In this document: one piece after another, positions 1,432-48,106 of the stretch
Layout of the letters: each line of letters opens with the position of its first letter
Position numbering within the stretch: the first letter of the stretch is position 1
Assembly: GCA_003667245.1 (NCBI GenBank)
Contig: RCNN01000068.1
Span: 78,374 to 142,373 of the forward strand
Length of the DNA: 64,000 nt
Direction of reading: 5' to 3'
Source of the DNA: Heterostelium multicystogenum
Lineage: Eukaryota > Evosea > Eumycetozoa > Acytosteliales > Acytosteliaceae
Made by a program: the position numbers and the translations under genes
Notes under the pieces: generated by a model
Told to the model about the DNA's origin: nothing
The model's input: the letters and a program-made list of their open reading frames with translations, nothing else
The model's database searches: none

Positions 1432-3144
1432 ATGAAGTGTACTCTACATAATAAAGCATATGAATCGATATGTGACAAATGTAATGTATTGATGTGTACA
1501 AAATGTATCATCATTCATATCAAGGAAAATGATTCTTGTAATCAATACATTAATCATATCGATGATATGATCAGACTACATTTGAATAATGCACTCTTGG
1601 AGTCAGATAACACTGATCAAAATCAAACAGAGACCAAAGAAAAAAGCACTTGATATAAAAGATACTCTCAGATCATTGTGGAGTTCATTAAAGTCATCGG
1701 TATCAGAAATCAAAGAGATCACAACAAACAGAGAATGAGATATCAACAAAACACTTTGAACAATATCATCAATATCTCATCATTGAAGAACAAAGATTAA
1801 AGAATACAATGAAAGAGAACAAACAATCATTGACTGATCGAATCGAAAACAACATCAATCAATTTGAAAATCTCATCAATATCATCAATATCAATAATCA
1901 TTTGAATCATAACAATAATAATGATAATACAACAGATGATAATCAAGATGGCAACACAACAAACAATGATAGCACTTCACAATACATGACAACAAATTGA
2001 TATCATCAATGGAATCATGTTCATCTCTGTCATCATTCATCTTGAACAACAAACAAAACAATATTCAATGATCGATACAATCAAACGATATGATATCAAT
2101 CAACTGATCAATCAATTCGACAATGATCATCAATCAATGATTCTATATCTATTGAATCAATACAATCAATCATTCAATGACAAATCAATCGATGATATCA
2201 AACCAACAAATTCATATTCATTGACAACCAAAGCAATCGATTCTGAATCAATGAAAATCAATCATCAAACAATCAATACAATTATCAATCAAATCAGAGA
2301 CAACAAACAATGAAGATCATGATGATCATTCAAACAAATCAACATATATCTTCACAACTCACACAAAGAAAGGAGCAACACTCATCAATGTTTCAAACAA
2401 CAATTCAATCGAACAATTACAATTAGATTATCATTTCTATGATACATTCTCATCAACTATCAGAGTTGATGAATATATCTATGTATTTGGTGGTGAGAAT
2501 AATCGAAACAAATGGATTCGATTCTCAATCAAATCTCAATCAATTGAACACATTGGTTACATGGATGGAATTGATCCTGACTTTTCCATATCAGTTTGTT
2601 ATGATGGTCAAGATCATATCTATTTGGTTAATGGTGAAGAAAAAACACATCGATTGATCGATTCAACACCAGAACAATGACATTTGAAAGATATCATCAA
2701 TTACCAAAACATTATGGTGGTGAACAAGTATCAACAATGATCTTGAATGGAATATTATATTCATTGCCACGTGATAAGAATATTCTATTTAGATTTGACT
2801 TGACAAACAAAACCATTTCAGAACATCAAATAGATTGCATACCATTCTCAGCATGTCATGACAACAATGGTCATTTCTTCATTCATTCAAAATTAGACAA
2901 ATGTTTCATCAAATACAATGTCTTGACCAAAGAAACAACCAAACTCAATCAAATACCTGCCAAAGATGGATATGTATTTCCAATTTACGATTGTGTATCA
3001 GCAACAGAGAGTTATATTTATTCATTTGGTGGTATCGACGATGGTAACTTCAAATATTCCATTGAGAATGATCAATCAGAACCAATCTATTTGGATGATC
3101 AATATAACAGATTTTGGTGTTCATCAATTGTTTATTCAAAATAG
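1432..3144 (+). pseudogene. B-box/propeller protein, MKCTLHN type, multiply frameshifted
   Basis: A copy of the intact gene at 12897-14597, interrupted by at least eight small indels. It starts with the same B-box (C-x2-H-x7-C-x2-C-x4-C-x2-C). The frame breaks near 1645 (two extra A, one T lost), 1740, 2000, in the A run near 2082, near 2215 and 2270, and again between 2313 and 2677. The last frame (2677-3144) reads cleanly through the final propeller modules to a TAG at 3142-3144. Its variable-loop residues resemble those of the copy at 46287-48106. The 3' flank to about 3206 is nearly identical to that of the copy at 15964-17690. The number of breaks, several outside homopolymers, makes a true pseudogene likely. 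Confidence 0.8.
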
Positions 3145-3162
3145 ATTAAAATCAAAATAACC

Positions 3163-5560
3163 TCAAATAAGTATCAATAAATATTCGAATTCTGATGAGT
3201 TATGGGTGTGGGATCCTTCAGTGGACTTTGCATGCCTGATTGTGCGACCAGTGATCAAGCGATGAATGACCCAACGTTCGAAGCGTAATCCTCGCTCTTT
3301 GGTCGAAAGAACACTTGACAACGGTGGCAATGGAGAGGCAGTTCCAGAAAAGTGAAATTGAAACAAGGCCAAGAATGCTCCATAGCATGTTGAATGATAG
3401 GTTCCATCCTTTGGCTGGTAGTAAATCAGTCCATGATCGACGAAGGAACCAGGTGATTCTGGTTGTTGGTCATCCTTTGAGAAGAACCGATTGAGGAAGT
3501 GGAGATATACCTCAGCCCTGGCTGCATTGCTTTGGATCTTTTCCCAGTATGAGAGAGTCTCAGGATAGAAGGTCTTGTTCTTCCTTGAGATGGCAAAGTC
3601 CATGGGATTGTCTGAAGATGTTGGGAGTTGTGACCATTGTTGGAGACAAAGGATCTCTCTTGGTGTTCCACCAGTGATGCGATGGAGCTCTCGCTGTTGC
3701 TCCTCGGTCTCTTGCCACTTGGAAGGAAGTGCAATTGGACCCCCTCTCTTGATTGCTAGGACGAATGAATCAAACGAGAATGGAGTGACATAGTGAAGCC
3801 AACGATCGAGGGCAGGTTGAAGGTTGTGTTCGAATTGAGAGTGAGCAGATCCAGAGATGAGAAGGATGGTTCTCTGACCTTGGAGTTCAGATGTGCCAGT
3901 GATGAAAGGTCTGAAGAATGGTCGCTGATATGAGTATCGAACGGCTCCACCTGGTGTGTCAATTTGATTCTTCCAGAGCTCGTTGTGTTCATCTACTGCA
4001 TAGACGACGGGTGACTTTGTGAATACTCGGAGTTGTTGATAGAGCTCATCACACACTTGAACTGCGAGTGGTTGATTCTTGATTCCAGTTCCGAGGTTGG
4101 CGAGATCAAGGAGGGTGGTTGCAGACGTGAATGTGGAGGAAGTGATTCTGATTTTTGAGGCACGGATCGCATTGAAGGAGATGAATCTATCCAAGAAGTA
4201 TTGGGCTGCTTCCTCATCTGTCTTCTTCTTTGCCCATTCAAGTGTTCTTCCCTGTTAACATGTTGGTGAGTTCTCTGATATATGAGCATTATGGTAGGAA
4301 GTACTTACAATGTAGACAACAATGCAATCGTTCACGTATGAAATGGAAGTGAGGAGATAGGATTCAAATGTCTTTCCACATCCATTTGGGCCTGACAAGA
4401 TGATGCCGTTGTTCGAGTCTCCCTCTACGTCCTTCTCTGACAACTTGATGCTGTTCCAGAACTTCATGACGAGGTCGTATCTCTGTTGTGTGAGAAGAAA
4501 GGAATCGAGTTGGCCAAGGTCTGGCCTCATCTCTTTGGGGAGGTATACCTTGGGGAATGTAGGCAACTGGATAGTCTTGCCGATCATTGACTTGAGAGAG
4601 TCAAGAGATCGCAAATGATCCCATTTGGGGTCATATCGGTCAGGAAGTGACGAGTCCTGTTGCTGCTCGGGCGCTATACACAAAGTCAGAACAATGAGCT
4701 TGGATGAATGATCATCATTGTACTACATACGTATTGGTGTTGGTTGAATCTTCTCCTCGATAGGGATCTTAAGCTGCTGAAGGATCTTCAAGAGTTTGTT
4801 GAGGTTAGATGGAGTGAAGTTGTTGTTGTCGTCATTGAATGATGCAAAGTGACGCACTGCAGGAGCTTGGTGATGTAGATTCTGCTGAAGTAAAGTAATA
4901 TCAGTGTCCGAATACAAAGATGGTATGACTCTCTTGGAGAGAGAGAGGATGGCACGTCTTGATGATGATATCCTTGACAACATATCTGTAAAGATGTACA
5001 TGAAACTGAGAGCTAATGGTGATGATAAGAAAAAACAAATCTTATTAACGAATATCGTGCCAATCCTGTCAAATTACAAGATGGAGCGAATGGACAACTT
5101 GTAAGATTGAGATTCATCTCAAAGAAGAATCCTGTGTTTAAAGTTAACCATCGCTCTCTTCTCTCATTAGACAGAAGGATAATAGAAATTGAAGTTGTGA
5201 CTGGAAGTGATGAGGATGCTTCACATGTCAACAAGAAAGATAGGTCAGCATCTACAGTTTGATTCCAAATGCCCATCCATTGGAGAGGCAGCACGCTATC
5301 AACTTGAACAGCAATATAGACATCTGGTCCTTGGACAGAAGTTTGAATCCATACATTTTCTTTAATATCTTCTTGATCCTCTTGTCAAAACCAAGTCGAT
5401 CCAACTAATAGTCAAGTGCATCTGGTTCTATCTGAATCCAATCCATTGAGAATGAGCGATATTTCCTTGTGATTCAAAGCATAGAGGCGCCTGATGCTAG
5501 TTGAGTATCAACTCACAGAGATTGGGCAACGACTGTGATGATCGATAGCTGTTGGGATGA
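3163..5560 (-). pseudogene. Crinkler/RHS-like P-loop NTPase, copy A, 3'-truncated
   Basis: Three exons can be built on the minus strand: 4731-4983 from the ATG at 4983 (open frame continues upstream), 4309-4673, and 4251 down to a stop at 3163. The introns 4674-4730 and 4252-4308 are both 57 nt, GT...AG, and keep the frame. Exon 2 has a Walker A motif (GPNGCGKT) and exon 3 a Walker B-like segment (VVYAVDEHNELW). This layout is typical of the NTPase module of Crinkler/RHS proteins, which often carry a C-terminal restriction-endonuclease-like domain. The protein from the ATG at 4983 is about 568 residues. The real C-terminus is lost: at 3207 the gene is fused to the 3' flank of a B-box gene and ends in about 15 unrelated residues. 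The N-terminal region up to about 5560 matches copy B. The family call is from motif memory and unverified. Confidence 0.6.
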
Positions 5561-6765: not shown

Positions 6766-8507
6766 TTACACGGTTTTTATTAATGCAGCACCAGTACAAC
6801 ACCTATTGACAGTATCTTTATCATTGATTTTTAACCACTGGTCGTTTTGAACTGAATAGAGGTGGTTTCCATATTGTGTGCCACTAATGAAGTAAATGTG
6901 TGATCCCATAACGTATACTGTTGATTGATTTATACGGTACAATTGGGAGAATGGTGATTTAAGATTAACTCGCTTTTTGTCTACCATCGATATCCTGTAG
7001 AACGTAGAATCGGCATCTAAAATATAGAGATATCCATCACCATAGCATACAGAGTTGGTGTGAGTACTATAACCAATGTCACTTATAAACTCGCTGAACT
7101 GTTTGTTTCTAAATCGTACTTGGTAACTGACCTGTAATGGTTATTAAAAGCATCACCTCCAACTACATAGATTGCATTCTCATGGTGGAAAATGTAGGCA
7201 CAAGTAGAAGCATATCCAATGTCTCCTAATACCTCCCACTTTAGAGTTTCTATGTTTAATCTTGCTAGTCGCGATAGATGTGTCAGATGAAAAAAACCAC
7301 CATATATATATAAATACTTTCCACCATCATGGCATACACAAATATGTTCTCCACCACCTTCAGGAATCTCTCCATGGTAGTCCCATTTATGTTCCATCAA
7401 AGAGTATCTTGAAAATGTTGTACTCTTATCGTTTCCTCCAATACATAGACACTCTGTTGAACCTGTATAATAGAGTTGAGAGTTGCTGATCGATCTTCAC
7501 TGTCTCCCTCCAATTTCTATCCACACCTCTGATGAAGTGTCAAACAAGTTGCATCCATCAGGTCCCATTGAAAAATCATGTTGCCACTGGACCTATCTAC
7601 GTCATCATTTAAATTGACCAATTCATAGAGAGTTTGAAGCTCTTTCTTTATAGATGTTAGTTTTAGATCATCAAATCGAATTTGATATGATATCGGATCT
7701 TGGTACTCCAGAGGATATACTGTTTGATGGGTTCTAATTTTCAAAAGAGTGTCATAGACTTGATAATCACATATTGGCTCTGGCGATGCAAATAAAGAAG
7801 ATTCATTTTGAATTATAAAATTCATTTATGGTACTACTGATTTTATGTTGGAAATAACTGTAGATAGGTGGTAGTTTTTTGTTTCTGTATAACCTGGTTA
7901 TCGACAATTTGGCCTTTGGAATCTAGAGTTGAGTTTTCGAGAACTGGAAAGCATTTGGATTTCTTTTCTTTGAGATTAGAATTTAGAGATACCAAAATAC
8001 TTTTGATAGATTTAATTTCCTCGACTAATGACTCCATAATTGACTCGGCTTTTTCTTTTTCATCATGAATCGGCTTCAAAAATCTTGTGCTCCTCTAACC
8101 TAAGATACTCATGCAGATTCCTATAAAATTCATTCACTACTGTAGAAGTATCTTCAAACAACTGATGTTTCTGGGCCAAATCCTTTAGATATATCCAAAT
8201 TTCAGTCAATCTCTTTGCATAATTGAATTGTTCTTTAGTTTTTCGATTTGAGACTCTCTTCATTTTCATCCACATCTTTTCTAATACCACTATTATCTAA
8301 TTGTTCTCTAATTAACCTATTTTCATTCTCAATAAGTTGGAATACTGATTTTCTAATACTCTCTATATCTTCAAAACAATGACTACTATGTTTGGATTCT
8401 GTTTGACAATATAAGCAAATTATTTCATTACAATCTGTACACATGTATTTAAGTTTTTTGGAATGTCTACTACATATATAATAAATTCATCTCTTAAATA
8501 TTTTCAT
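6766..8507 (-). pseudogene. Divergent B-box/kelch protein, copy A, frameshifted
   Basis: Starts at 8507 by comparison with copy B. The N-terminus is a B-box (C-x2-H-x7-C-x2-C-x4-C-x2-C, then His). A coiled-coil segment follows, then kelch modules with hallmark IYVFGG-like strands (VYVFGG, LYIYGG, IYVVGG). It is a separate subfamily from the larger propeller group. Frameshifts occur in the first codons (A4 instead of A3), in an A run near 8253 shared with copy B, near 8085, near 7840, around 7440-7500, and after the KYDLET segment near 7110. Shared and private lesions together suggest decay began before the duplication, unless the run-length differences are sequencing errors. Other family members join a B-box to an interaction propeller, so a scaffold or recognition role is plausible. 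Confidence 0.75.
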
Positions 8508-9617: not shown

Positions 9618-11367
9618 CTATTTTGAATAAACAATTGATGCACACAAAAATCTGTTATATTGATCATCCAAATAGAATGGTTCTGATTGATCATTCTCAA
9701 TTGAATATTTGAAGTTACCATAATCTTGACCACCAAATGAATAAATATAACTCTCTGTTGCTGATACACAATCGTAAATTGGATATACATATCCATTTTT
9801 GGCAGGTATCTGATTGAGTTTGCTTGTTTGTTTGGTCATGACATTGTATTTGATGAAACATTTATCTACTCTTGAATGAATGAAGAAATGACCATTGTTG
9901 TCATGACATGCTGAGAATGGTATGCAATCTAATTGATGTTCTGAAATGGTTTTGTTTGTCAAGTCAAATCTAAATAGAATATTATTATCAAAAGACAATG
10001 AGTATAATATTCCATTCAAGATCATTGTTGATACTTGTTCACCATAATGTTTTGGTAATTGATGATATCTTTCAAATGTCATTGTTTTGATGTTGAATCG
10101 ATCAATTCGATGTGTTCTAGAACCATTAACCAAATAGATATGATCTTGACCATCATAACAAACTGATATGGAAGTGTCAGGATCAATTCCATCCATGATA
10201 CCAATGTGTTCAATTGATTGAGATTTGATTGAGTATCGAATCCATATGTTTGGATTATTTAAACCACCAAATACATAGATATATTCATCAACTCTGATAA
10301 TTGATGAGAATGTATCATCGAAATGATAATCCAATTGTAATTGTTCGATTGAATTGTTGTTTGAAACATTGATGAGTGTTGCTCCTTTCTTTGTGTGAGT
10401 TGTGAAGATATATGTTGATTTGTTTGAATGATCATCATGATCTTCATTGTTTGTTGTCTCTGATTTGATTGATAATTGTATTGATTGTTTGATGATTGAT
10501 TCTATTGATTCAGAATCGAATGATTTGGTTGTCAATGAATATGAATGTTGTTTGATATCATCGATTGATTTGTCATTGAATGATTGATTGTATTGATTCA
10601 ATAGATATAGAATCATTGATTGATGATCATTGTCGAATTGATTGATCAGTTGATTGATATCATATCGTTGATTGTATCGATCATTGAATATTGTTTGTTT
10701 GTTGTTCAAGATGAATGATGACAGAGATGAACATGATTCTATTGATGATATCAATGTTGTTGTCATGTATTGTGAAGTGCTATCATTGTTTTGTTGTCTT
10801 GACATCTTTATTATCATCTGTTGTATTATCATTGTTGTTATTATTTAAATGATTATTGATATTGATGATATTGAGAAGATGTTTCAATTGATTGATGTTG
10901 TTCTCGATTCGATCAGTCAATGATTGTTTGTTCTCTTTCATTGTATTCTTTAATCTTTGTTCTTCAATGATGAGGTATTGATGATATTGTTCAAAGTGTT
11001 GTGATATCTCATTCTCTGTTGTTGTGATTGATTGTATCTCTGATACCGATGACTTTAATGAACTCCACAATGATGACAGTATTTGTTTGAAAGTTAATTG
11101 GTCATTATTAATGTCATGGTTGGTGCTTATTGTTGTTGAATGATGATCTATGTCATCAAAGATATTGTTGTCATTTAATTGATTGACAATCTCATCGATA
11201 TGTTCGCAATATCTTCCATGATCATGTGTTCTGTTGTGTATTGCAATACATTTCGAACACATCAATTGATTACACTTATGACAAATCAGTTCCAATGATT
11301 TATTGTGTTGTTGACATCGTGATTCGATACCACTGTTTATCTCTATCTCTTCATGTGCTCTCTTCAT
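9618..11367 (-). CDS. B-box/propeller protein, K-type, one frameshift
   Basis: About 582 codons from the ATG at 11367 (MKRAHEEIEINSG) to a TAG at 9618. The order is B-box near residues 17-50, a spacer, a coiled coil, an Asn/Asp/Thr linker, a conserved helical segment and a six-module kelch-like propeller. The only break is one extra A at about 10788-10795 in the linker (compare 25990-26060 and 14060-14080). Without it the frame is continuous, so the gene may be functional. The propeller carries its own set of variable-loop residues (for example SRT where others have GEE, YNT or LST). It is transcribed divergently from the S-type fragment at 12012. Confidence 0.75.
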
Positions 11368-12896: not shown

Positions 12897-14597
12897 CTAT
12901 TTTGAATAAACAATTGATGCACACCAATATCTGCTAAATGGATCATCCAAATAGATTGGTTCTGATTGATCATTCTCAATTGAATACTTGAAGTTACCAC
13001 AGTCTTTACCACAAAATGAATAAATATAACTCTCTGTTGCTGATACACAATGGTAAATTGGAAATACTCCATTTTTGGCAGGTATCACATTGAGTTTGGT
13101 TGTTTGTTTGGTCATGACATTGTATTTGATGAAACATTTATCTTCGATAGAATGAATGAAGAAATGACCATTGTTGTCATGACATGCTGTGTGTATTCTG
13201 CAATCCAATTGTTGTTTTGAAATGGCTTTGTTTGTCAAGTCAAATCTAAATAGAATATTCTTATCACGTGGCAATGAATATAATATTCCATTCAAGATCA
13301 TTGTTGATACTTGTGCGCCATAATGTTTTGATAATTTATGATATCTTTCAAATGTCATTGTTTTGATGTTGAATCGATCAATTCGATGTGTATTATAACC
13401 ATTAACCAAATAGATATGATCTTGACCATCATAACAAACTGATATGTCACTTTTAGGATCAATTCCATCCATATCACCAATGTGTTCAATTGATTGAGAT
13501 TTGATTGAGAATCGAATCCATATGTTTCGATTAAAATAACCACCAAATACATAGATATGTTCATCAACTCTGATAATTGATTGGAATGTACCATTGAAAT
13601 CATAATCAAATTGTAATTGTTCGATTGAATTGTTGTTTGAAATATTGATGAGTGTTGCTCCTTTATATGAGTGTGTTGTTAAGATATATGTTGATTTGTT
13701 TGAATGATGATCTTCATTGTTTGTTGTCTCTGATTTGATTGATAATTGTATTGATTGTTTGATGATTGATTTCATTGATTCAGAATCGATTGCTTTGGTT
13801 GTCAATGAATATGAATGTTGTTTGATATCATCGATTGTTTTGTCATTGAATGATTGATTGTATTGATTCAATAGATATAGAATCATTGATTGATGATCAT
13901 TGTCGAATTGCTTGGTGAGTTGATTGATATCATAATGGTTATTGTATCGACGATTAAATATTGTTTGTTTGTTGTTCGAGATGAATGATGTCAGTGATGA
14001 AGAAGACTGTATTGATGATATCAATGTTGTTGTCATGTATTGTGAAGTTGTATCATTGTCTGTTGTGTTGTCATCTTGATTATCATCTGTTGTATTATCA
14101 TTATTGTTGTTGTGGGTGCTGTTGTTATTCCAATGATTATTGATATTGATGATATTGATGAGATGTTTCAATTGATTGATGTTGTTCTTGATTCGATCAG
14201 TCAATGATTGTTTGTTCTCTTTCATTGTATTCTTTAATCTTTGTTCTTCAATGATGAGATATTGATGATATTGTTCAAAGTGTTGTGATATCTCATCCTC
14301 TGTTGTTGTGATCTTATTGATTTCTGATACCGATGACTTTAATGAACTCCACAATGATCTGAGAGTATCTTTGATATCAAAGTGCTTTTCGTTGGTCTCT
14401 GTTTGATTTTGATCAGTGTTATCTGACTCCAAGAGTGCATTATTCAAATGTAGTCTGATATCATCGATATGATTAATGTATTGATGACAAGAATTATCAT
14501 TTTCCTTGATATGAATGATGATACATTTTGTACACATCAATACATTACATTTGTCACATATCGATTCATATGCTTTATTATGTAGAGTACACTTCAT
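12897..14597 (-). CDS. B-box/propeller protein, MKCTLHN type, intact reference copy
   Basis: The only fully open member, 566 residues. The B-box is at residues 3-35 (C3-x2-H6-x7-C14-x2-C17-x4-C22-x2-C25 and downstream His). Residues about 70-165 are charged and coiled-coil-like. Residues about 165-200 are an Asn/Thr/Asp linker, and 200-300 a conserved helical region. The propeller begins near 308. Module starts fall near 308, 351, 398, 440, 481 and 528 (spacing 41-47), which fits a six-bladed kelch-type propeller with YVFGG- and YLVNG-like strands. There is no RING domain and no signal peptide, so a cytosolic TRIM-like adaptor or sensor is a reasonable inference. The usual GG of the last module is CG here. 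Confidence 0.85.
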   Translation of the reverse strand: MKCTLHNKAYESICDKCNVLMCTKCIIIHIKENDNSCHQYINHIDDIRLHLNNALLESDNTDQNQTETNEKHFDIKDTLRSLWSSLKSSVSEINKITTTEDEISQHFEQYHQYLIIEEQRLKNTMKENKQSLTDRIKNNINQLKHLINIININNHWNNNSTHNNNNDNTTDDNQDDNTTDNDTTSQYMTTTLISSIQSSSSLTSFISNNKQTIFNRRYNNHYDINQLTKQFDNDHQSMILYLLNQYNQSFNDKTIDDIKQHSYSLTTKAIDSESMKSIIKQSIQLSIKSETTNNEDHHSNKSTYILTTHSYKGATLINISNNNSIEQLQFDYDFNGTFQSIIRVDEHIYVFGGYFNRNIWIRFSIKSQSIEHIGDMDGIDPKSDISVCYDGQDHIYLVNGYNTHRIDRFNIKTMTFERYHKLSKHYGAQVSTMILNGILYSLPRDKNILFRFDLTNKAISKQQLDCRIHTACHDNNGHFFIHSIEDKCFIKYNVMTKQTTKLNVIPAKNGVFPIYHCVSATESYIYSFCGKDCGNFKYSIENDQSEPIYLDDPFSRYWCASIVYSK

Positions 14598-15963: not shown

Positions 15964-17690
15964 ATGCAAGAAAACTCAAACTATAACCATGTTTGTCAAG
16001 AACATAATAAGACTCTTAAATATATTTGCTATCAATGTAATCGATTGATGTGTAGTGTATGTTTTTATGATCACTTCAAACGTCACACTGATCATTCAAC
16101 ACAATGTGAACATATCAATGAGATAACACAATCTTTGAATCACAATACAATCTATAACATCGATAGTATCAATATCAATCAACAAGAGAACAATAATAAT
16201 AATAGTAATGACAATTATAAAGATAGTTCATCATCAAGAGAAGATTAGAGAGTATTTGGAAAACATTGAAAGCATTATCATCTGAATACATCAGTTTAAC
16301 AGCAACTGAGAATGAAATCAGAGAGCAATTCAAACAGATCTATAAGTATATCATGGAACAAGAACGTCTATTGACAAGAGATATCACCAATCACAAACAA
16401 TCAATCGAACAAATCATATCAAACAACATCGATCATCTCAAACAAATCGATAATATAGTGAATATCATCGATCACAATCAACATGAAACCAATGATAATC
16501 ATGATGATGATATATCATCAACTGTAACTGATACCACCTCACAATACATGACAACAACATTGATGTCATCAATAGAATCATGTTCATCACTGTCATCATT
16601 CATCTTGAACAACAAACAAACAATATTCAATGATCGATACAATCAACGATATGATATCAATCAACTGATCAATCAATTCGACAATGATCATCAATCAATG
16701 ATTCTATATCTATTGAATCAATACAATCAATCATTCAATGACAAAGCAATCGATGATATCAAACAACATTCATATTCATTGACAACCATACCAATCGATT
16801 CTGAATCAATACAATCAATCATCAAACAATCAATACAATTATCAATCAAATCAGAGACAACAAACAATGAAGATCATCATTCAAACAAATCAACATATAT
16901 CTTCACAACACACTATGAGAAAGGAGCAACACTCATCAATGTTTCAAACAACAATTCAATCGAACAATTACAATTAGATTATCATTTCTTTAGTACATTC
17001 TCATCAATTATCAGAGTTGATGAATATATCTATGTATTTGGTGGTTCGAATAATCCAAACAAATGGATTCGATACTCAATCAAATCTCAATCAATTGAAC
17101 TCATTGGTGACATGAATGGAATTGATCCTGACTTTTCCATATCAGTTTGTTATGATGGTCAAGATCATATCTATTTGGTTAATGGTTTGAGTACACATCG
17201 AATTGATCGATTCAACATCAGAACAATGACATTTGAAAGATATCATCAATTACCACAACATTATGGCACACAAGTATCAACAATGATCTTGAATGGAATA
17301 TTATATTCAGTGTCATTAAATAAGAATATTCTATTTAGATTTGACTTGACAAACAAAACCATTTCAGAACATCAATTAGATTGCAGACCATACACAGCAT
17401 GTCATGACAACAATGGTCATTTCTTCATTCATTCAAAATTAGACAAATGTTTCATCAAATACAATGTCTTGACCAAAGAAACAAACAAACTCAATCAGAT
17501 ACCTGCCAAAGATGGATATGTATTTCCAATTTACGATTGTGTATCAGCAACAGAGAGTTATATTTATTCATTTGGTGGTCAAGATTATGGTAACTTCAAA
17601 TATTCAATTGAGAATGATCAATCAGAACCAATCTATTTGGATGATCAATTCAGCAGATTTTGGTGTGCATCAATTGTTTATTCAAAATAG
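15964..17690 (+). CDS. B-box/propeller protein, MQENSNYN type, one frameshift
   Basis: About 575 codons from ATG 15964 to the TAG at 17688-17690. The B-box is C-x2-H-x7-C-x2-C-x4-C-x2-C with following His residues. A coiled coil and Asn-rich linker follow, then the propeller. The only break is one missing base at about 16227-16232 (TTCATCATC versus TTCATTCATC in the paralogue at 33691), after which the frame is open to the end. This copy and the one at 33691 share their 5' flank and N-terminal half almost perfectly but differ in the propeller loops, as expected for cassette-like exchange or selection on loops. Confidence 0.75.
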
Positions 17691-24862: not shown

Positions 24863-26622
24863 CTATTTTGAATAAACAATTGATGAACACCAAAATCTGT
24901 TATATTGATCATCCAAATAGATTGGTTCTGATTGATCATTCTCAATTGAATATTTGAAGTTACCATATTCTTTACCACCAAATGAATAAATATAACTCTC
25001 TGTTGCTGATACACAATCGTAAATTAGAAATACTTCATCATCTTTGGCAGGTATCTGATTGAGTTTGGTTGTTTGTTGAGTCAAGACATTGTATTTGATG
25101 AAACATTTATCTTGGATAGAATTAATGAAGAAATGACCATTGTTGTCATGACATGCTGAGAATGATATGCAATGCAATTGATGTTCTGAAATGGTTTTGT
25201 TTGTCAAGTCAAATCTAAATAGAATATTATTATCAAAAGACAATGAGTATAATATTCCATTCAAGATCATTGTTGATACTTGTGGACCATAATGTTGTGG
25301 TAATTGATGATATCTTTCAAATGTCATTGTTTTGATGTTGAATCGATCAATTCGATGTGTTTCTTCACCATTAACCAAATAGATATGATCTTGACCATCA
25401 TAACAAACTGATATGGAAAGTCAGGATCAATTCCATCCATGTAACCAATGTGTTCAATTGATTGAGATTTGATTGAGAATCGAATCCATTTGTTTCGATT
25501 ATTCCAACCACCAAATACATAGATATATTCATCAACTCTGATAATCGATTCGAATGTATAATTGAAATCATAAATCCAATTGTAATTGTTCGATTGAATT
25601 GTTGTTTGAAACATTGATGAGTGTTGCTCCTTTATTATCATGTGTTGTGAAGATATATGTTGATTTGTTTGAATGATGATCTTCATTGTTTGTTGTCTCT
25701 GATTTGATTGATAATTGTATTGATTGTTTGATGATTGATTTCATTGATTCAGAATCGATTGCTTTGGTTGTCAATGAATATGAATGTTGTTTGATATCAT
25801 CGATTGTTTTGTCATTGAATGATTGATTGTATTGATTCAATAGATATAGAATCATTGATTGATGATCATTGTCGAATTGATTGATCAGTTGATTGATATC
25901 ATATCGTTGATTGTATCGATCATTGAATATTGTTTGTTTGTTGTTCAAGATGAATGATGACAGTGATGAACATGATTCTATTGATGATATCAATGTTGTT
26001 GTCATGTATTGTGAAGTGTTATCAATGTCTGTTGTCCTGTCATCTTGATTATCATCTGTTGTATTATCATTATTATTATTATTATCATTGTTGTTGTTGT
26101 TCAATGATTATTGATATTGATGATATTGATGAGATGTTTCAATTGATTGATGTTGTTCTCGATTCGATCAGTCAATGATTGTTTGTTCTCTTTCATTGTA
26201 TTCTTTAATCTTTGTTCTTCAATGATGAGATATTGATGATATTGTTCAAAGTGTTGTGATATCTCATTCTCTGTTGTTGTGATTGATTGTATCTCTGATA
26301 CCGATGACTTTAATGAACTCCACAATGATGACAGAATTTGTTTGAAAGTTAATTGGTCATTCATATTGTCTTGGTTGGTGCTTATTGTTGTTGACTGATG
26401 ATCGATGTCATCAAAGATATTGTTGTCATTTAATTGATTGACAATCTCATCGATATGCTCGCAATATTTTCCATGATCATGTGTTCTGTTGTGTATTGCA
26501 ATACATTTCGAACACATCAATTGATTACACTTATGACAAATCAGTTTCAATGATTTATTGTGTTGTTGACATCGTGATTCGATACCATTGTTTATCTCTA
26601 TCTCTTCATGTGCTCTTTTCAT
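24863..26622 (-). pseudogene. B-box/propeller protein, K-type, unit B copy, several frameshifts
   Basis: Starts at 26622 (MKRAHEEIEINNG) with the same B-box as the unit A copy. Frames change near 26100 (linker), 25572 (one extra A) and 25417 (bases lost around the third module). The final frame runs to a TAG at 24863. Propeller loop residues differ from the unit A copy (GEE instead of SRT; P instead of E after HYG), although the flanks are nearly identical. Confidence 0.75.
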
Positions 26623-27296: not shown

Positions 27297-29119
27297 ATGT
27301 CTGATAGTAGTAGTAATAATAACAAACATCTAAAGTGTCAGATTCACAACAAAAGATATAAATTCATATGTTACAAATGCAACATATTGATGTGTTCAAG
27401 TTGTTTGTTGAATCACTCAAAAAGAACAACCTGATCATTCACTATACCTTGATGATGCAAAACAAATCAGAGAATCATGTAATAAAGATATCATTTATAA
27501 CATAGATCTAAATAAGATTATTGACAATAGCTGTTGTAATAATAATAATACTAATAATAATAGTAATGATGATGATAATGAGCGTAATAAAAGTACATTT
27601 ATCAAGGATCGAGTCAAATCAATTTGGAGATCATTGAAATCATCATCATCTAAATATAGTTCATGCTCAGCAACAGAGAAGGAGATAACTGATCATTTCG
27701 AAACAGATCTACAAATACATTTCACTCCAAGAGCATCAACTGAAGAGAGAGATCCTCCACGACAAAGAAACACTCGAACAATCGATATCTGATGATATCA
27801 ATCACCTCAAACATTTGGATACAATCATCAATATCATTGATAATCTAAATAAATCAATACATTGACAACAACAAGCATATTATCGATGATAAAGGCAATG
27901 CTGATCATAATTCAGAGTCAACAGACAATGATACATCCTATCAGTACATGACAACTAAAATAATATCATCAATAGAATCATGTTCATCTCTGTCATCATT
28001 CATCTTGAACAACAAACAAACAATATTCAATGATCGATACAATCAACGATATGATATCAATCAACTGATCAATCAATTCGACAATGATCATCAATCAATG
28101 ATTCTATATCTATTGAATCAATACAATCAATCATTCAATGACAAAACAATCGATGATATCAAACAACATTCATATTCATTGACAACCAAAGCATTCGATT
28201 CTGAATCAATACAATCAATCATCAAACAATCAATACAATTATCAATCAAATCAGAGACAACAAACAATGAAGATCATGATGATCATTCAAACAAATCAAC
28301 ATATATCCTGACAACATGCTTGAATAATGGAGCAACACTCATCAATGTTCAAACAACAATTCAATCGAACAATTACAATTGGATTATGATTTCAATTATA
28401 CATTACAATCAATTATCAGAGTTAATGAATATATCTATGTATTTGGTGGTTATCATAATCAAAACAAATGGATTCGATTCTCAATCAAATCTCAATCAAT
28501 TGAACTCATTGGTGATATGGAAGGAATTGATCATGACTATTACATATCAGTTTGTTATGATGGTCAAGATCATATCTATTTGGTTAATGGTAAAAGCACT
28601 CATCGAATTGATCGATTCAACATCAAAACAATGACATTTGAAAGATATCATCAATTACCACAACATTATGGTCTACAAGTATCAACAATGATCTTGAATG
28701 GAATATTATATTCAGTGTCATTTAATAATATTCTATTTATATTTGACTTGACGAACAAAACCATTTCAGAACATCGATTCGATTGCAGACCATTCACAGC
28801 ATGTCATGACAACAATGGTCATTTCTTCATTCATTCTATCGAAGATAAATGTTTCATCAAATACAATGTTTTGACCAAAGAAACAACCAAACTCAATATG
28901 ATACCTGCCAAATTTGGATTAGTATTTCCAATTTACCATTGTGTATCAGCAACAGAGAGTTATATTTATTCATTTGGTGGTAAAGATTTTGGTAACTTCA
29001 AATATTCAATTGAGAATGATCAATCAGAACCATTCTATTTGGATGATCAATTTAGCAGAGGTTGTTGTGCATCAATTGTTTATTTAAAATCAAATAATAT
29101 CAATCGGAATAAGGTATAA
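27297..29119 (+). pseudogene. B-box/propeller protein, S-type, frameshifted
   Basis: Starts at 27297 (MSDSSSNNNKHLKC). Breaks: A5 run at about 27419-27423 (A4 in the copy at 46387), an extra A near 27700, a deletion near 27860 and a lost T near 28348. The last frame (28379-29119) runs through the propeller and ends 15 residues beyond the usual stop because the family stop codon is altered (a TTTAAAATC tail). Its variable loops resemble those of the copy at 33691 (YHNQNKW, GKSTH). Confidence 0.75.
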
Positions 29120-30377: not shown

Positions 30378-32118
30378 TCATTTTGATGTTAATCTAATTT
30401 GAATAAACAATTGATGAACACCAAATTCTGTTAAATGGCTCCGAATAGATTGGTTCTGATTGATCATTCTCAATTGAATATTTGAAGTTACCATAATCTT
30501 TACCACCAAATGAATAAATATAACTCTCTGTTGCTGATACTCGATGATAAATTGGAAATACATATCCATCTTTGGGCAGGTATCTGATTGAGTTTGCTTG
30601 TTTGTTGAGTCAAGACATTGTATTTGATGAAACATTTATCATAGAAAGAATGAATGAAGAAATGACCATTGTTGTCATGACATGCTGTGAATGGTATGCA
30701 ATGCAATTGATGTTCTGAAATGGTTTTGTTTGTCAAGTCAAATCTAAATAGAATATTATTATCACGTGGCAATGAATATAATATTCCATTCAAGATCATT
30801 GTTGATACTTGTTCACCACCATAATGTTTTGGTAATTGATGATATCTTTCAAATGTCATTGTTTTGATGTTGAATCGATCAATTCGATGTGTTCGATAAC
30901 CATTAACCAAATAGATATGATCTTGACCATCATAACAAACTGATATGAAATAGTCACGATTAATTCCTTCCATGATACCAATGTGTTCAATTGATTGAAT
31001 TTGATTGAGATTCGAATCCATTTGTTTGGATTATGATAACCACCAAATACATAGATATATTCATCAACTCTGATAATGATGGAATGTACCCCAGAATTTA
31101 TAATCTAATTGTAATTGTTCGATTGAATTGTTGTTTGAAACATTGATGAGTGTTGCTCCTTTATTCCGGTGTGTTGTGAAGATATATGTTGATTTGTTTG
31201 AATGATGATCTTCATTGTTTGTTGTCTCTGATTTGATTGATAATTGTATGATTGTTTGATGATTTGATTGTATTGATTCAGAATCGATTGCTTTGGTTGT
31301 CAATGAATATGAATGTTGTTTGATATCATCGATTGATTTGTCATTGAATGATTGATTGTATTGATTCAATAGATATAGAATCATTGATTGATGATCATTG
31401 TCGAATTGATTGATCAGTTGATTGATATCATATCGTTGATTGTATCGATCATTGAATATTGTTTGTTTGTTGTTCAAGATGAATGATGACAGAGATGAAC
31501 ATGATTCTATTGATGATATCAATGTTGTTGTCATGTATTGTGAAGTGCTATCAATGTCTGTTGTGTTGTCATCTTGATTATCATCTGTTGTATTATCATT
31601 ATTATCACTGTTGTTGTTGTTGTTGTTGCTGCTGCTGTTGTTGTTATTCAAATGATTATTGATATTTGATAATATTGATGAGATGTTTCAATTGATTGAT
31701 GTTGTTCTCCGATTCGATCAGTCAATGATTGTTTGTTCTCTTTCATTGTATTCTTTAATCTTTGTTCTTCAATGATGAGATATTGATTGATATTGTTCAA
31801 AGTGTTGTGATATCTCATCCTCTGTTGTTGTGATCTTATTGATTTCTGATACTGATGACTTTAATGAACTCCACAATGATCTGAGAGTATCTTTGATATC
31901 AAAGTGCTTTTCTTTGGTCTCTGTTTGATTTTGATCAGTGTTATCTGACTCCAAGAGTGCATTATTCAAATGTAGTCTGATATCATCGATATGATTAATG
32001 TATTGATTAACAAGAAATCATTTTCTTGATATGAATGATGATACATTTTGTGGCACATCAATACATTACATTTGTCACATATCGATTCATATGCTTTATT
32101 ATGTAGAGTACACTTCAT
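30378..32118 (-). pseudogene. B-box/propeller protein, MKCTLHN type, heavily frameshifted
   Basis: Starts at 32118 with the same first 30 codons as the intact gene. Frame breaks occur near 32050, 32010, 31785, 31670, 31250, 31075, 30995, 30576 (extra G) and a deletion near 30440. Several are outside homopolymers, so this looks like genuine decay. The propeller still shows a distinct set of loop residues (YRT, FYD, GGE). The family 3' UTR with AATAAA follows at 30352-30377. Confidence 0.8.
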
Positions 32119-32424
32119 CTCTTATAATTAATAAATATATAAAATATATAAATAGAATGATAATGTAGATATCTATAAAAATATATTATATATCTGATTG
32201 TGATAAGAAGAGTTGGTGGTGATGATAATTTTGACTTTGTGTAATGATTGATTTAAAAAAAACAGAACTTAAAAATTTGATTTTTAAACAAAAACCAAAA
32301 TTACAATTAAATTTGTTAAAAAAATTTTTTTAGATTTCTTTTTAAAAAAGCAGCAATAAATTTGTAAAGAAACAAAGATGACAAAGTTGGGAGATATTGG
32401 GATATAAATACCTTAAATTGTCCA
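32119..32424. other. Upstream flank of the MKCTLHN-type copy
   Basis: AT-rich; closely matches the region 14598-14790 upstream of the intact gene. No ORF. Confidence 0.5.
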
Positions 32425-33690: not shown

Positions 33691-35416
33691 ATGCAAGAAA
33701 ACTCAAACTATAACCATGTTTGTCAAGAACATAATAAGACTCTTAAATATATTTGCTATCAATGTAATCGATTGATGTGTAGTGTATGTTTTTATGATCA
33801 CTTCAAACGTCACACTGATCATTCAACACAATGTGAACATATCAATGAGATAACACAATCTTTGAATCACAATACAATCTATAACATCGATAGTATCAAT
33901 ATCAATCAACAAGAGAACAATAATAATAATAGTAATGACAATTATAAAGATAGTTCATTCATCAAGAGAAGATTAGAGAGTATTTGGAAAACATTGAAAG
34001 CATTATCATCTGAATACATCAGTTTAACAGCAACTGAGAATGAAATCAGAGAGCAATTCAAACAGATCTATAAGTATATCATGGAACAAGAACGTCTATT
34101 GACAAGAGATATCACCAATCACAAACAATCAATCGAACAAATCATATCAAACAACATCGATCATCTCAAACAAATCGATAATATAGTGAATATCATCGAT
34201 CACAATCAACTTGAAACCAATGATAATCATGATGATGATATATCATCAACTGTAACTGATACCACCTCACAATACATGACAACAACATTGATATCATCAA
34301 TAGAATCATGTTCATCACTGTCATCATTCATCTTGAACAACAAACAAACAATATTCAATGATCGATACAATAACCATTATGATATCAATCAACTGATCAA
34401 TCAATTCGACAATGATCATCAATCAATGATTCTATATCTATTGAATCAATACAATCAATCATTCAATGACAAATCAATCGATGATATCAAACAACATTCA
34501 TATTCATTGACAACCAAAGCATTCGATTCTGAATCAATACAATCAATCATCAAACAATCAATACAATTATCAATCAAATCAGAGACAACAAACAATGAAG
34601 ATCATCATTCAAACAAATCAACATATATCTTCACAACACACTGGAATAATGGAGCAACACTCATCAATCTTTCAAACAACAATTCAATCGAACAATTACA
34701 ATTAGATTATGATTTCAATTATACATTACAATCAATTATCAGAGTTGATGAATATATCTATGTATTTGTGGTTTATATAATCAAAACAAATGGATTCGAA
34801 TCTCAATCAAATCTCAATCAATTGAACACATTGGTGATATGGAAGGAATTAATCGTGACTATTACATATCAGTTTGTTATGATGGTCAAGATCATATCTA
34901 TTTGGTTAATGGTAAAAGCACTCATCGAATTGATCGATTCAACATCAAAACAATGACATTTGAAAGATATCATCAATTACCACAACATTATGGTCGACAA
35001 GTATCAACAATGATCTTGAATGGAATATTATATTCATTGTCACTTAGTAAGAATATTCTATTTAGATTTGACTTGACAAACAAAACCATTTCAGAACATC
35101 AATTAGATTGCATACCATTCTCAGCATGTCATGACAACAATGGTCATTTCTTCATTCAAGAAAAGATAAATGTTTCATCAAATACAATGTCTTGACTCAT
35201 CAAACCACCAAACTCAATCAGATACCTGCCAAAGATGGATTTGTATTTCCAATTTATCATCGAGTATCAGCAACAGAGAGTTATATTTATTCATTTAGTG
35301 GTAAAGACGATGGTAACTTCAAATATTCAATTGAGAATGATCAATCAGAACCAATCTATTTGGATGATCAATTTAACAGATTTTGGTGTCCCTCAATTGT
35401 TTATCAAAATAGATAG
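33691..35416 (+). pseudogene. B-box/propeller protein, MQENSNYN type, frameshifted late
   Basis: The first 360 codons are open (B-box, coiled coil, linker, start of propeller). The frame breaks at about 34768 where GGTGG has become GTGG in the conserved YVFGG word, again near 34800, and near 35155 where the IHS loop is damaged. The last frame ends at about 35416. It is the partner of the gene at 15964-17690: that one is broken early and open late, this one the reverse. Confidence 0.8.
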
Positions 35417-37906: not shown

Positions 37907-38145
37907 ATAACATTATACCCAATCCACCAACCTGAATAAATTTAAATTTATTTTAAGACCATTCGTTGAAAATAGGGTTTGACAAAAATAATTCATCAAA
38001 TCGGTTTTTTGGGGCAAACGGAGGATCGAATCGACATTTTAATTAATTCAATTTTTTGATCAAAAAATAGATAGTTAAGCTCGAGCTTAACCCAAAACCA
38101 AAAATAATTACAAACATTTGATTATTGTTAATTTTAGAACAAAGA

Positions 38146-42560: not shown

Positions 42561-43609
42561 ATGTATAGAAATAATCTTGTGATACTGTTTGGTATCATAG
42601 TATTAAGTATGTTGGTTTGTCATAGCTCAGGTGCTGGTATTTCATTTCAAGGAAGCTCAGCAGGTGGTAAACCTGGTAATGTCACAGTTGCAATGACAAA
42701 AGGATTATATACTTCAGACGGCAAATTTAACATGAAGAACAAAGCAAGATACGATTGGACTTGGGTTAGATTACATATTAGAGACGAAGTTACAAAACTA
42801 TACTGGATATGCTGATTTCCATCCAAGAGTAGATGAGTTTACAACACTTAGAATCCCATATCGTATGTTTCCTTTCATATCGAACTGCTTGTAATAAAAT
42901 CAATTCTAACCAATCACTTTCGAAACAGTCGGATACGCTGGACTTTTCAATCCAGGTGCAACTATTTGGTTGGAGTTTTTTGGCTAATGAATCAACTACC
43001 AACTATATCTATAACAATGTCACTCGTACCTATCCATGTCCAGTCGATAATACTTCAACAACCAATCCAGCTCCACCAGCTGGCGCATGCCCCTCCGGAA
43101 CAACAGAATTTACCATTACCGAAGTTGTTGCGTCTAATTTTACCACATACGGAAACATGACTCTTCCACCAAAGCGTATTGCTTACTTGAAACCAAATGG
43201 TAATCTCGATCCAATTCCATACATGGTGAACACTTTCACTGTGATTGCGACCATCGACACTGGTGCTCTCGTTAACGTTGAGTGGGACGGTGATCGTGAT
43301 AAATCGATTTGCAAACAATGCGAATACTGTCTACAGAACCAATGCGCAGTCAGAAGATCGACAATGAAATGCGACGGTGATGAATACGATATCAACGAAG
43401 TCGACACCAACCAAAAAAGGATGTACAGTCAAGATATTTATTGCATGGAAAGGCACAGATAGCAAGAAGAAGCCATGCATCAGTATTTCAAAGGCACCAT
43501 CGAACTTCTCGAAATATTCATTCTATTCAATTTCACAAATGGGTCTTGGACTTGTCAACGACTTTTTACAACGTGTCGTCGGAAATACCAACAATCCAAA
43601 CACAGCCTA
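42561..43609 (+). CDS. Secreted Cys-rich protein, paralogue 1, three homopolymer shifts
   Basis: Signal peptide, then the AGISFQGSSAGGKPGN start of the mature protein. A 66-nt intron lies at 42863-42928 (GTATGT...ACAG). Compared with the neighbour at 44437, the frame is broken by one extra base in each of three runs: A at 42794-42797, T at 42976-42981 and A at 43413-43418. Everything between is conserved and codon-aligned, so the protein is probably intact in the cell and the indels are errors. The C-terminal half has a Cys cluster (KQCEYCLQNQCAVRR) and a conserved ending with NTNNPNTA. Function unknown. Confidence 0.7.
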
Positions 43610-44436: not shown

Positions 44437-45505
44437 ATGAAATATATTAATAATAGTATAACATTTTGGATATTTATATTTTTAATTGTATTTACATTTT
44501 ATATAAACAGTAGTAATGCTGCTGGTATTAGTTTTCAAGGTAGTTCTGCTGGTGGAAAGCCAGGAAATATAACTAAATATACCAAAGATACCACTTGGAA
44601 ATATATAATGACTACCAGAGCGAAAGCTAGATACGATTGGACTTGGTGTAGATTGCACGTTAGAGATGCCTTAACTAATTATACTGGATATGCTGATTTT
44701 CATCCTAGAGTAGATGAGTTTACCACTCTACGAATACCATTGGGTAAATATATATAGATCTTTAGAATCTAATCTTTTTTCTATTTGTTTATCATCACTA
44801 ACGCTGGAATATTAATTTATAGCTGGATATGGTATATTATTTAATCCAGGTGCAACCATTTGGTTGGAGTTCTTTGCAAATATATCTGTAACTAATCAGA
44901 TTTATACTAAAGAGAACAAGACCTATGATTGTCCTTCAAATAGTTCCACCCCAAATCCAACAGCTCCTCCCCCACCTGCAGGAGCATGCAACAACACGAA
45001 TACATACATTGTTGAACAGACGGTTGTGTCAAATTTCACAACCTATAGTAATTTGACACTTCCTCCCAAGCGTGTTTATTATGAAAAGCCCAATGGTAAT
45101 CTGGATCCAACTCCATACATGGTAAATACCTTCACTGTTATAGCAACCATCGATACAGGAACTTTAGTGAACGTACAATGGGATGGTGATAGAGATCCCT
45201 CCATATGCAAGCAATGCGAATACTGTTTACAGAACCAATGCGCAGTCAGAAGATCGACAATGAAGTGTGATGGTGATGAATACGATGTCAACGAAGTAGA
45301 TAGCAATCAAAAAGGATGTACATTAAAGATATTCTTAGCTTGGAAGGGAACAGACAGCAAGAAGAAGCCATGCATCAGTATTTCAAAAGCACCATCGAAC
45401 TTCTCGAAATATTCATTCTATTCAATTTCACAGATGGGTCTTGGACTTGTCAACGACTTTTTACAACGTGTTATTGGTAACACCAACAATCCAAACACAG
45501 CCTAA
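44437..45505 (+). CDS. Secreted Cys-rich protein, paralogue 2, intact
   Basis: Exon 1 44437-44743, intron 44744-44822 (79 nt), exon 2 44823-45505; 329 residues. N-terminal hydrophobic signal (IFIFLIVFTFYI), then AGISFQGSSAGGKPGN shared with paralogue 1. The middle has a Pro/Asn/Thr patch and several N-glycosylation sites. The C-terminal half carries CKQCEYCLQNQC and further Cys, suggesting a disulfide-bonded extracellular protein. Tandem duplication with the upstream gene is clear, with the last 60 codons nearly identical at the DNA level. I do not recognise the family. Confidence 0.75.
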
Positions 45506-46286
45506 AAGAGAAAAGCTTTCCTTCGAATATGTACAAATATCATTATTCTATGCATATAATATCTTTAATAATAAAATATTCAAACTTATATACCTGTTAT
45601 TTATTCTTATTGTAGACTGAGTTTTTAGATGAGATAGTAATTCCTAAAGTTTAAAAAATCGATACCGGGTCAGAGAGCGTATCTAGACGTCTTGTTTAGA
45701 TTCAAGTAAGTCTTCTAATTTGTTTTTATAACCAAGTGATATTTATTTTAGATCTTCTCATCATCATGTCAATCCTCTTAGTTGTAATCTGGATCATCAC
45801 GATTATGCAATTTTATTGGCAAAGATAGTATCCTATTGCAATGACATTGTTGTCAATCAGGAGCTGAGTAATACTAACATGGCTTGGTGATGTAAACCTA
45901 TCAATGATTACAAAATCAATTCAGGAAAACTATTTGAATTTAACCATCAAATATTGTCAACTCTTGATTAACTTAATTATCGATAACAGAATAGAAGTCA
46001 AATATTGAAGAAGCAATCAATTATTTTATCTCTAAGAAGACAAGTCTAAAGAGGTTAAACACCTTTATTCTAAACATTCTATTTGATCTGTATATTAACT
46101 AAATTGATATGTTTGGATTGAATTCTTCCTCTATTGATCATACCTACAAAATTAATAAAATAGTTCCTGTAACGTTTGGTTTAATTTTAATCCAATCTCA
46201 GAAAATTAAAAAAACTCATAAATATATATATTTCATGAACACCGCCATTAGTGATATTCTATTAATCATTTTTTACTTAAGAAATT
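45506..46286. other. Spacer with a two-exon coding relic
   Basis: Apart from the relic at 45636-45890 and a short coding-like stretch near 45895-45975, no gene can be supported. Confidence 0.5.
45636..45890 (+). pseudogene. Two-exon remnant of an unknown protein
   Basis: A frame reading FLKFKKSIPGQRAYLDV reaches a 46-nt intron (45706-45751, GTAAGT...TTTTAG). It continues in frame for 46 codons (including CNLDHHDYAILLAKIVSY) to a TGA at 45888-45890. There is no start codon, so it is a fragment. The texture resembles large dictyostelid ankyrin-type families. Identification is not possible from the sequence alone. Confidence 0.4.
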
Positions 46287-48106
46287 ATGTCAAATAATAA
46301 AAAATAGTGATAGTAATAATAACAAGCATCTAAAGTGTCAGATTCACAGCAAAAGTTATGAATTCATTTGTTACAAATGCAACATATTGATGTGTTCAAG
46401 TTGTTTGTTGAATCACTCAAAAGAACAACCTGATCATTCACTATACCTTGATGATGCAAAACAAATCAGAGAATCATGTAATAAAGATATCATTTATAAC
46501 ATAGATATAAATAAGATCTTTGATAGTACTATTAATGATGATGCCACTAGTAATAATAATAATGGTAGTAGTAATGATGATGATAATAATGAATGTAAAA
46601 GTACATTTATCAAGAATCGAGTCGAATCAATTTGGAGATCATTGAAATCATCATCATCAAAGTATAGTTCATGCTCAGCAACAGAGAAAGAGATAACTGA
46701 TCATTTCGAACAGATCTACAAATACATTTCACTCCAAGAACACCAACTGAAGAGAGAGATCCTCCACGACAAAGAAACACTCGAACAATCGATATCTGAT
46801 GATATCAATCACCTCAAACATTTGGATACAATCATCAATATCATTGATAATCTCAATAAATCAATAGACCATATTCATGACAACAACAAGCATCTTATCG
46901 ATGAAGTCAATCCAGATCATAATTCAGAATCAACAGACAATGATACAACCTCACAATACATGACAACAACATTGATACCATCCATAGAATCATGCTCTAC
47001 ATTGTCATCATTCATCTCGAACAACAAACAAACAATATTCAATGATCGATACAATCAACGATATGATATCAATCAACTGATCAATCAATTCGACAATGAT
47101 CATCAATCAATGATTCTATATCTATTGAATCAATACAATCAATCATTCAATGACAAATCAATCGATGATATCAAACAACATTCATATTCATTGACAACCA
47201 AAGCATTCGATTCTGAATCAATGAAATCAATCATCAAACAATCAATACAATTATCAATCAAATCAGAGACAACAAACAATGAAGATCATCATTCAAACAA
47301 ATCAACATATATCTTCACAACACACATAGATAAAGGAGCAACACTCATCAATGTTTCAAACAAACAATTCAATCGAACAATTACAATTAGATTATCATTT
47401 CTATGATACATTCTCATCAACTATCAGAGTTGATGAATATATCTATGTATTTGGTGGTGAGAATAATCGAAACAAATGGATTCGATTCTCAATCAAATCT
47501 CAATCAATTGAACTCATTGGTGACATGAATGGAATTGATCCTGACTTTTCCATATCAGTTTGTTATGATGGTCAAGATCATATCTATTTGGTTAATGGTG
47601 AAGAAACACATCGAATTGATCGATTCAACATCAGAACAATGACATTTGAAAGATATCATCAATTACCAAAACATTATGGTGGTGAACAAGTATCAACAAT
47701 GATCTTGAATGGAATATTATATTCATTGCCACGTGATAAGAATATTCTATTTAGATTTGACTTGACAAACAAAACCATTTCAGAACATCAATTAGATTGC
47801 ATACCATTCTCAGCATGTCATGACAACAATGGTCATTTCTTCATTCATTCAGGAGATGATAAAGGTTTCATCAAATACAATGTCATTACTCATCAAACCA
47901 CCAAACTCAATCAGATACCTGCCAAAGATGGATATGTATTTCCAATTTACCATTGCGTATCAGCAACAGAGAGTTATATTTATTCGTTTGGTGGTAAAGA
48001 CGATGGTAACTTCAAATATTCAATTGAGAATGATCAATCAGAACCAATCTATTTGGATGATCCATTTAGCAGAGTTTTGTGTGCATCAATTGTTTATTCA
48101 AAATAG
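46287..48106 (+). CDS. B-box/propeller protein, S-type, two single-base shifts
   Basis: ATG at 46287 (MSNN...). An extra A in an A6 run at about 46299-46304 separates the start from the long frame. The B-box, coiled coil and linker then read openly to about 47360, where one extra A (AAACAAACAA) shifts the frame. The propeller reads 47351-48106 to the TAG. With those two bases corrected the gene is full length, so it may be functional. It stands alone, 11 kb from the main cluster. Its propeller loops are close to the gene at 1432-3144, which suggests exchange across the cluster. Confidence 0.75.

What the first reader, a model, noticed from the sequence alone, without database searches (positions are those of the whole stretch)
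1432..48106. B-box/propeller family whose differences sit at regularly spaced loop positions
Seen directly: nine alignable copies are nearly identical over long stretches, but differ at the same small sites. These are the two residues after TH before KGATLIN, the residues after YVFGG, two after YLVNG before TH, one after HYG, three after YS before NILF, three after DC before ACHD, two after IHS, one or two in PAK-G, one after FGG-D, and two after the last Arg. In the intact gene module starts are at about 308, 351, 398, 440, 481 and 528, so the variable sites repeat once or twice per blade. Kelch propellers bind partners through blade-edge loops. Inference: a multigene recognition repertoire (self/non-self, pathogen or foreign DNA sensing) that diversifies its binding face while gene conversion keeps the framework uniform, with B-box and coiled coil for assembly as in TRIM proteins. 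I know of no described dictyostelid system of this kind.
Basis: partly seen in the sequence, partly recalled or inferred. Interest (0 to 1): 0.88.

Follow-up and report, generated by a model that had tools for sequence, protein, structure and literature searches.

The report
Amoeba receptor repertoire with hypervariable face
This genome, likely of a social amoeba, carries 66 copies or fragments of one protein gene whose recognition domain keeps a nearly constant frame while its sequence varies, under diversifying selection, in twelve loops predicted to lie on one face, so the family is likely an intracellular repertoire for recognising many different targets.

Summary
The window holds nine copies of a B-box/coiled-coil/Kelch gene (one intact, 12897-14597 minus); the genome holds 66 copies or fragments. 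Differences concentrate in 12 clusters, two per blade. The 38 best of 56 Heterostelium album relatives, a separate clade, vary at the same positions (Spearman 0.60). The 24 most variable H. album sites have dN/dS 4.1 in this genome (LRT 81.8), 6.2 with one tree per blade; tree-free counts are 299 replacement to 13 silent. AlphaFold gives a confident six-bladed Kelch propeller; all 22 top sites lie in BC or DA loops, the ligand face of KLHL/Keap1 proteins, none in AB/CD loops. Silent differences are about four-fold lower in the propeller half than in the B-box/coil half, which fits exchange between copies. Best reading: a RING-less, TRIM-like intracellular recognition repertoire, convergent with fungal HNWD receptors and fish finTRIMs. 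Ligands and output are not shown. Only 10 of 66 copies read in one frame over 480 or more codons; the others may be pseudogenes, fragments or assembly errors.

The parts
12897..14597 (-). Intact family gene (566 codons plus stop): B-box, coiled coil, helical linker, six-bladed Kelch propeller
   Evidence: Open frame; Kelch_6 E 6e-17, B-box weak and below cut-off; model mean pLDDT 80.2, pTM 0.51
14469..14597 (-). B-box zinc finger of the intact gene
   Evidence: Pfam zf-B_box E 0.0079, under its cut-off; 7 of 8 putative ligand columns nearly invariant among copies, the eighth (H39) not
14115..14375 (-). Predicted long helix, model residues 75-161 (coiled coil)
   Evidence: AlphaFold model
12900..13697 (-). 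Kelch propeller of the intact gene, model residues 301-566
13659..13673 (-). BC loop of blade 1 with variable q311-312
13578..13613 (-). DA loop of blades 1-2 with variable q334, 336, 337
13524..13544 (-). BC loop of blade 2 with variable q355, 356, 358
13443..13472 (-). DA loop of blades 2-3 with variable q384-385
13386..13403 (-). BC loop of blade 3 with variable q402-403
   Evidence: q402 is called negative by the single-site test
13314..13334 (-). DA loop of blades 3-4 with variable q429
13257..13268 (-). BC loop of blade 4 with variable q445-446
13191..13208 (-). DA loop of blades 4-5 with variable q468, 470
13137..13148 (-). BC loop of blade 5 with variable q485-486
13062..13085 (-). DA loop of blades 5-6 with variable q510-511, weaker in this genome (at most 1.89 bits), strong in H. 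album
12996..13013 (-). BC loop of blade 6 with variable q533-534
12918..12953 (-). DA loop of blades 6-1 with variable q554, 556, 558
1429..3141 (+). Broken copy (not among the 38 analysed)
9621..11319 (-). Copy with one frame change; propeller half open
15994..17687 (+). Copy with one frame change; propeller half open
24866..26574 (-). Broken copy
27330..29089 (+). Broken copy
30400..32121 (-). Broken copy
33721..35404 (+). Broken copy
46330..48103 (+). Copy with one frame change near q323

Best explanation
The family is likely a germline repertoire of soluble, intracellular TRIM-like recognition proteins, in which diversifying selection changes twelve loops predicted to form one face of a six-bladed Kelch propeller while the rest of the propeller is likely kept alike by exchange between copies. 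Shown by calls: the copies, the site pattern, dN/dS above 1 at sites chosen in another species, and low silent divergence in the propeller half. Predicted: the fold, the loop assignment, the long helix, and the absence of membrane segments. Inferred: the variable face binds different, fast-changing ligands, most likely proteins of intracellular bacteria, viruses or mobile elements. Also inferred: B-box and coiled coil oligomerise the receptor on its ligand, and output goes through a partner, since no RING was found in the protein itself.
Against: Only 10 of 66 copies read in one frame over at least 480 codons; omega is as high among the 24 copies not counted as open as among the 14 open ones (5.17 and 5.79), so the divergence came before the breaks or the breaks are assembly errors. 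q402, very variable, is called negative by the single-site test, and single-site p values are uncorrected. Tract tests are modest. The N-terminal half has no firm structural match to TRIM proteins. No ligand, expression or phenotype data.
Confidence: 0.6

Rival explanations
1. Allorecognition: the repertoire marks or reads self against non-self between conspecific amoebae, as fungal het genes do at cell fusion.
For: The closest evolutionary pattern known to me is the fungal HNWD family, which includes allorecognition genes (passages of PMC1805685; abstract of PMC12222747). Amoebae fuse in the sexual cycle (recalled).
Against: The protein has no predicted membrane segment and cannot read cell surfaces directly; it would act only after fusion. 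No population data.
Confidence: 0.15
2. Adaptors for fast-evolving partners inside the genome, such as mobile-element proteins, marking them for removal.
For: Retroelement remains with RNase H lie beside the cluster (49340-50212). The Kelch fold is a common substrate adaptor in ubiquitin ligases.
Against: No RING, BTB or F-box among the 16 Pfam families matched by 40 members, so the link to a ligase would need a partner.
Confidence: 0.12
3. A local mutator (targeted hypermutation or error-prone exchange) creates the diversity at the loop sites, and selection plays a smaller part.
For: Silent rates are about twice as high at and next to the sites as six or more codons away (alpha 2.3 and 2.2 against 1.1). 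Net frame-changing indels touch the sites in 14 of 41 cases against 80 of 397 simulated, p 0.026.
Against: The replacement rate rises about twelve-fold while the silent rate rises two-fold; 299 replacement to 13 silent. Raised silent rates nearby are also expected if old variants are kept at the sites.
Confidence: 0.07
4. Relaxed constraint: exposed loop residues drift neutrally while the rest is conserved.
For: Loops of propellers are generally tolerant (established knowledge), and many copies are broken.
Against: Neutral drift gives omega 1; the values are 4.1 to 6.2 and 299:13. The AB and CD loops are conserved (mean entropy 0.17 and 0.43 bits against 1.45 and 1.13 for BC and DA; omega 0.47 and 0.68, not significantly below 1).
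Confidence: 0.04
5. Artefact of assembly or alignment.
For: Highly similar repeats are misassembled from short reads in Podospora (passages of PMC12222747), and frame changes are common here.
Against: The same columns vary in separately assembled H. album; the flanking residues align without ambiguity; errors would not favour replacement over silent change or one loop class.
Confidence: 0.02

Closest known systems
H. album PN500 'B box-type domain-containing' hypothetical proteins (PPL_04xxx, PPL_05xxx and others)
   Same: Same family: 56 relatives found with the window protein, the upper 38 at 42-56% identity, with the same variable sites.
   Different: They form a separate clade. I found no description of the pattern in the searches run.
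Podospora anserina HNWD/NWD family (het-d, het-e; NACHT plus WD40)
   Same: Paralogous propeller family with concerted evolution and diversifying selection at two residue pairs per blade, in the d-a and b-c loops (passages of PMC1805685). This is the closest in how it works.
   Different: WD40 rather than Kelch; NACHT rather than B-box and coil; 10 members in that paper; repeats within one gene are nearly alike and exchange places, whereas the blades here are 10-41% identical.
finTRIM family of teleost fish
   Same: Large TRIM family with diversifying selection in loops of the C-terminal binding domain (passages of PMC2657112).
   Different: RING, two B-boxes and B30.2 in the longest members; animals; no Kelch.
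BTB-Kelch (KLHL) ligase adaptors, Keap1
   Same: Same Kelch fold; BC and DA loops form the ligand surface.
   Different: No BTB found here; BTB-Kelch proteins are not known to me as a diversified receptor repertoire (recalled).
D. discoideum DdTRIM
   Same: TRIM-type protein of a dictyostelid.
   Different: A single gene, orthologue of TRIM37 (passages of PMC5758549; TRIM37-like gene also in passages of PMC3503706).

Membership tests
TRIM (RBCC) proteins | RING finger | tested here: not met
   No RING among the 16 Pfam families matched at E 0.01 by 40 members; the B-box begins at residue 3 of the window protein
TRIM (RBCC) proteins | B-box | tested here: met
   Pfam B-box in 22 of 40 members, the window protein itself below cut-off; 7 of 8 putative ligand columns nearly invariant, the eighth not
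TRIM (RBCC) proteins | Coiled coil after the B-box | tested here: inconclusive
   Predicted helix 75-161; TRIM_CC in 2 of 40; TRIM25 profile match E 0.0024; structural matches weak
Kelch-repeat propellers | Six four-stranded blades with a double glycine ending strand B | tested here: met
BTB-Kelch ligase adaptors | BTB domain | tested here: not met
   No BTB among the Pfam families matched by 40 members
HNWD/NLR receptors | NACHT or other NOD ATPase plus WD40 | tested here: not met
   No NACHT or WD40 among the Pfam families matched by 40 members
finTRIM | B30.2 (PRY/SPRY) domain | tested here: not met
   No B30.2 among the Pfam families matched; Kelch instead
Diversified recognition repertoire (as a way of working) | Diversifying selection on a ligand-facing surface in a multigene family | tested here: met
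   that the surface binds ligand here is inferred from KLHL/Keap1
Immune or allorecognition receptor | Ligand recognition that triggers a response | not testable with these tools
   No functional data

The most novel reading that the evidence does not exclude
Social amoebae of this lineage carry a germline immune repertoire of their own invention: dozens of cytosolic TRIM-like receptors built on a Kelch propeller, with a 12-loop, antibody-like recognition face that diversifies under selection while gene conversion keeps the frame interchangeable. It would be an amoebozoan counterpart of fungal het NLRs and of finTRIMs, in a group whose model species, D. discoideum, is credited with a single TRIM.
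Probability: 0.5. Interest if true: 0.92.

Novelty: new variant of a known kind. Interest (0 to 1): 0.82.

Why it matters
A review of D. discoideum defence names one TRIM and presents it as the state before the family's expansion (passages of PMC5758549). A family of 66 copies or fragments here, and 69 related H. album proteins over two searches, with a diversified ligand face, would put an expanded receptor repertoire in phagocytic amoebae. It makes an open question testable: how amoebae without antibodies recognise many intruders. The 12 loop clusters are a ready barcode: isolates can be typed, clusters deleted in H. album, and single propellers used as baits.

Tried and rejected
Neutral drift in loops was rejected by dN/dS and by the conserved AB/CD loops. 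A targeted mutator is not needed: the indel signal near the sites fell from p 1.4e-4 (25 of 60) to p 0.026 (14 of 41) once shared clusters were netted and aligner bias was simulated. The first codon fit was discarded because the optimiser did not move the silent rate; it was redone. A first placing of loci assumed the wrong strand for minus matches and was redone.

Full report
What is there. The window is G000:C68:78374-142373 of a 29.7 Mb genome in 528 contigs. A search with the intact 567-codon frame at window 12900-14600(-) gave 89 six-frame matches, a lower bound by the tool's own note. After fetching the stretches and grouping the matches I count 66 copies or fragments that cover at least 100 query residues; 6 smaller groups were dropped. 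They lie in clusters on contigs C68, C69, C184 and C6 and singly or in small groups elsewhere. Nine lie in the window. Of 66, 16 read in one frame without a stop over their matched part, and 10 of those cover at least 480 query codons.

Variable sites. All 38 differ from each other at 22 core sites. Mean pairwise difference is 0.80 at those sites and 0.10 at 198 framework sites; that contrast is partly circular, because the framework was chosen by low entropy. At sites chosen in H. album the mean difference is 0.69, against 0.17 for the other propeller codons.

Second species. A protein search found 56 relatives, all labelled H. album PN500; a profile search found 57, again all H. album. In the 38 best of 56, entropy per column correlates with that of the window genome (Spearman 0.60, p 6e-28, 267 columns). 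The 22 top window-genome sites have mean entropy 2.81 bits in H. album against 0.86 elsewhere. In a framework-only tree of 56 window-genome and 38 H. album sequences, the 38 form a clade with no window-genome copy (support 0.705). So the two sets expanded, or were homogenised, separately and still vary at the same sites.

Selection. To avoid circular choice, the top 24 sites were taken from H. album: omega in the window genome is 4.13 (LRT against 1 is 81.8, p 1.5e-19), against 0.78 for the other 241 codons. Among 14 copies counted as open over the propeller half it is 5.79, and among the 24 others 5.17. With a separate tree for each blade, which is less sensitive to recombination, it is 6.17 (LRT 104.4). 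In 19 independent nearest pairs the sites show 299 replacement and 13 silent codon differences, the rest 679 and 219; relative to opportunity that is 5.9 and 0.83. Single-site tests found 26 of 265 codons positive at uncorrected p < 0.05, 12 of them in the H. album set (Fisher 7e-8), and 36 negative. q402, highly variable, is among the negative ones, perhaps through saturation. The silent rate is about twice as high at the sites and the next codon as six or more codons away. High omega in broken copies too means that the divergence came before the breaks, or that many breaks are assembly errors.

Exchange between copies. Among codons for the same amino acid, copies differ silently at 0.31 (B-box), 0.30 (linker), 0.24 (coil), 0.07 (q190-300) and 0.07 (propeller framework); within two codons of the H. 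album-defined sites 0.10, five or more away 0.05. The same genes thus have an old N-terminal part and a younger C-terminal part apart from the variable residues. Tract tests: PHI p 0.032; 10 of 703 pairs exceed the global 5% threshold for long shared runs, global p about 0.01. I read this as exchange of the C-terminal part between genes, moderately supported. Blades within the protein are only 10-41% identical, so exchange would be between equivalent blades of different genes.

N-terminal half. Seven of eight putative B-box ligand columns are nearly invariant among copies; the eighth, q39, is not. Pfam calls a B-box in 22 of 40 members, and no RING, BTB, F-box, NACHT or B30.2 is among the 16 families matched. 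A profile match to TRIM25 (E 0.0024) covers B-box and coil. A separate model of the N-terminal half from five window rows is only partly confident (mean pLDDT 69.0) and its structural matches are weak. The window protein shows no membrane segment by hydropathy (maximum 1.21); 3 of 56 H. album relatives exceed 1.6.

Mechanism. Shown: family, sites, selection, second species. Predicted: fold, loop assignment, helix, solubility. Inferred: binding of diverse ligands, oligomerisation, and defence as the pressure. Defence is preferred over allorecognition because the proteins look cytosolic and because amoebae take up microbes with every meal; this is a judgement, not a result.

Known systems. The pattern of two selected residue groups per blade, in d-a and b-c loops, with concerted evolution of the rest, was described for Podospora HNWD genes (passages of PMC1805685). 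The domain order recalls finTRIMs (passages of PMC2657112). The present family has neither their NACHT/WD40 nor their RING/B30.2. Papers seen: passages of PMC8535579, PMC1805685, PMC3503706, PMC2657112, PMC6720452, PMC4668279, PMC5758549 and PMC12222747 (of the last also abstract and outline); of all others only search listings.

Noticed in passing
3163-5384 (-) and 18092-20446 (-): Two similar, broken copies of a gene with a P-loop NTPase-like segment; only a weak Pfam DAP3 match.
   Followed up: partly
6766-7825 (-) and 22355-22954 (-): A second, different Kelch gene in two near-identical stretches; a B-box-like ORF lies at 23451-23810 (-).
   Followed up: partly
49340-51132 (-): Retroelement remains with RNase H (E 4.7e-8) and a zinc-binding reverse-transcriptase-associated segment.
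   Followed up: partly
35757-37906 (+): Family 2 glycosyltransferase in two adjacent ORFs; best relative of the second ORF in Acytostelium subglobosum at 53%, none in H. album among 16 hits.
   Followed up: partly
42833-43462 and 44816-45505 (+): Two paralogous ORFs with a shared cysteine-rich end; the second has only a weak Pfam match.
   Followed up: no
38122-41983 (+): Two adjacent long ORFs that may be one secreted-type protein gene split by a frame change; no clear Pfam match.
   Followed up: no
H. album proteins P0065 and P0069: Proteins named mediator subunit 27 and RNA polymerase II core subunit match the family profile; probably fused gene models.
   Followed up: no
Propeller half of 38 copies: Net frame-changing indels touch the variable sites slightly more often than simulated (14 of 41 against 80 of 397, p 0.026); unexplained.
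   Followed up: partly
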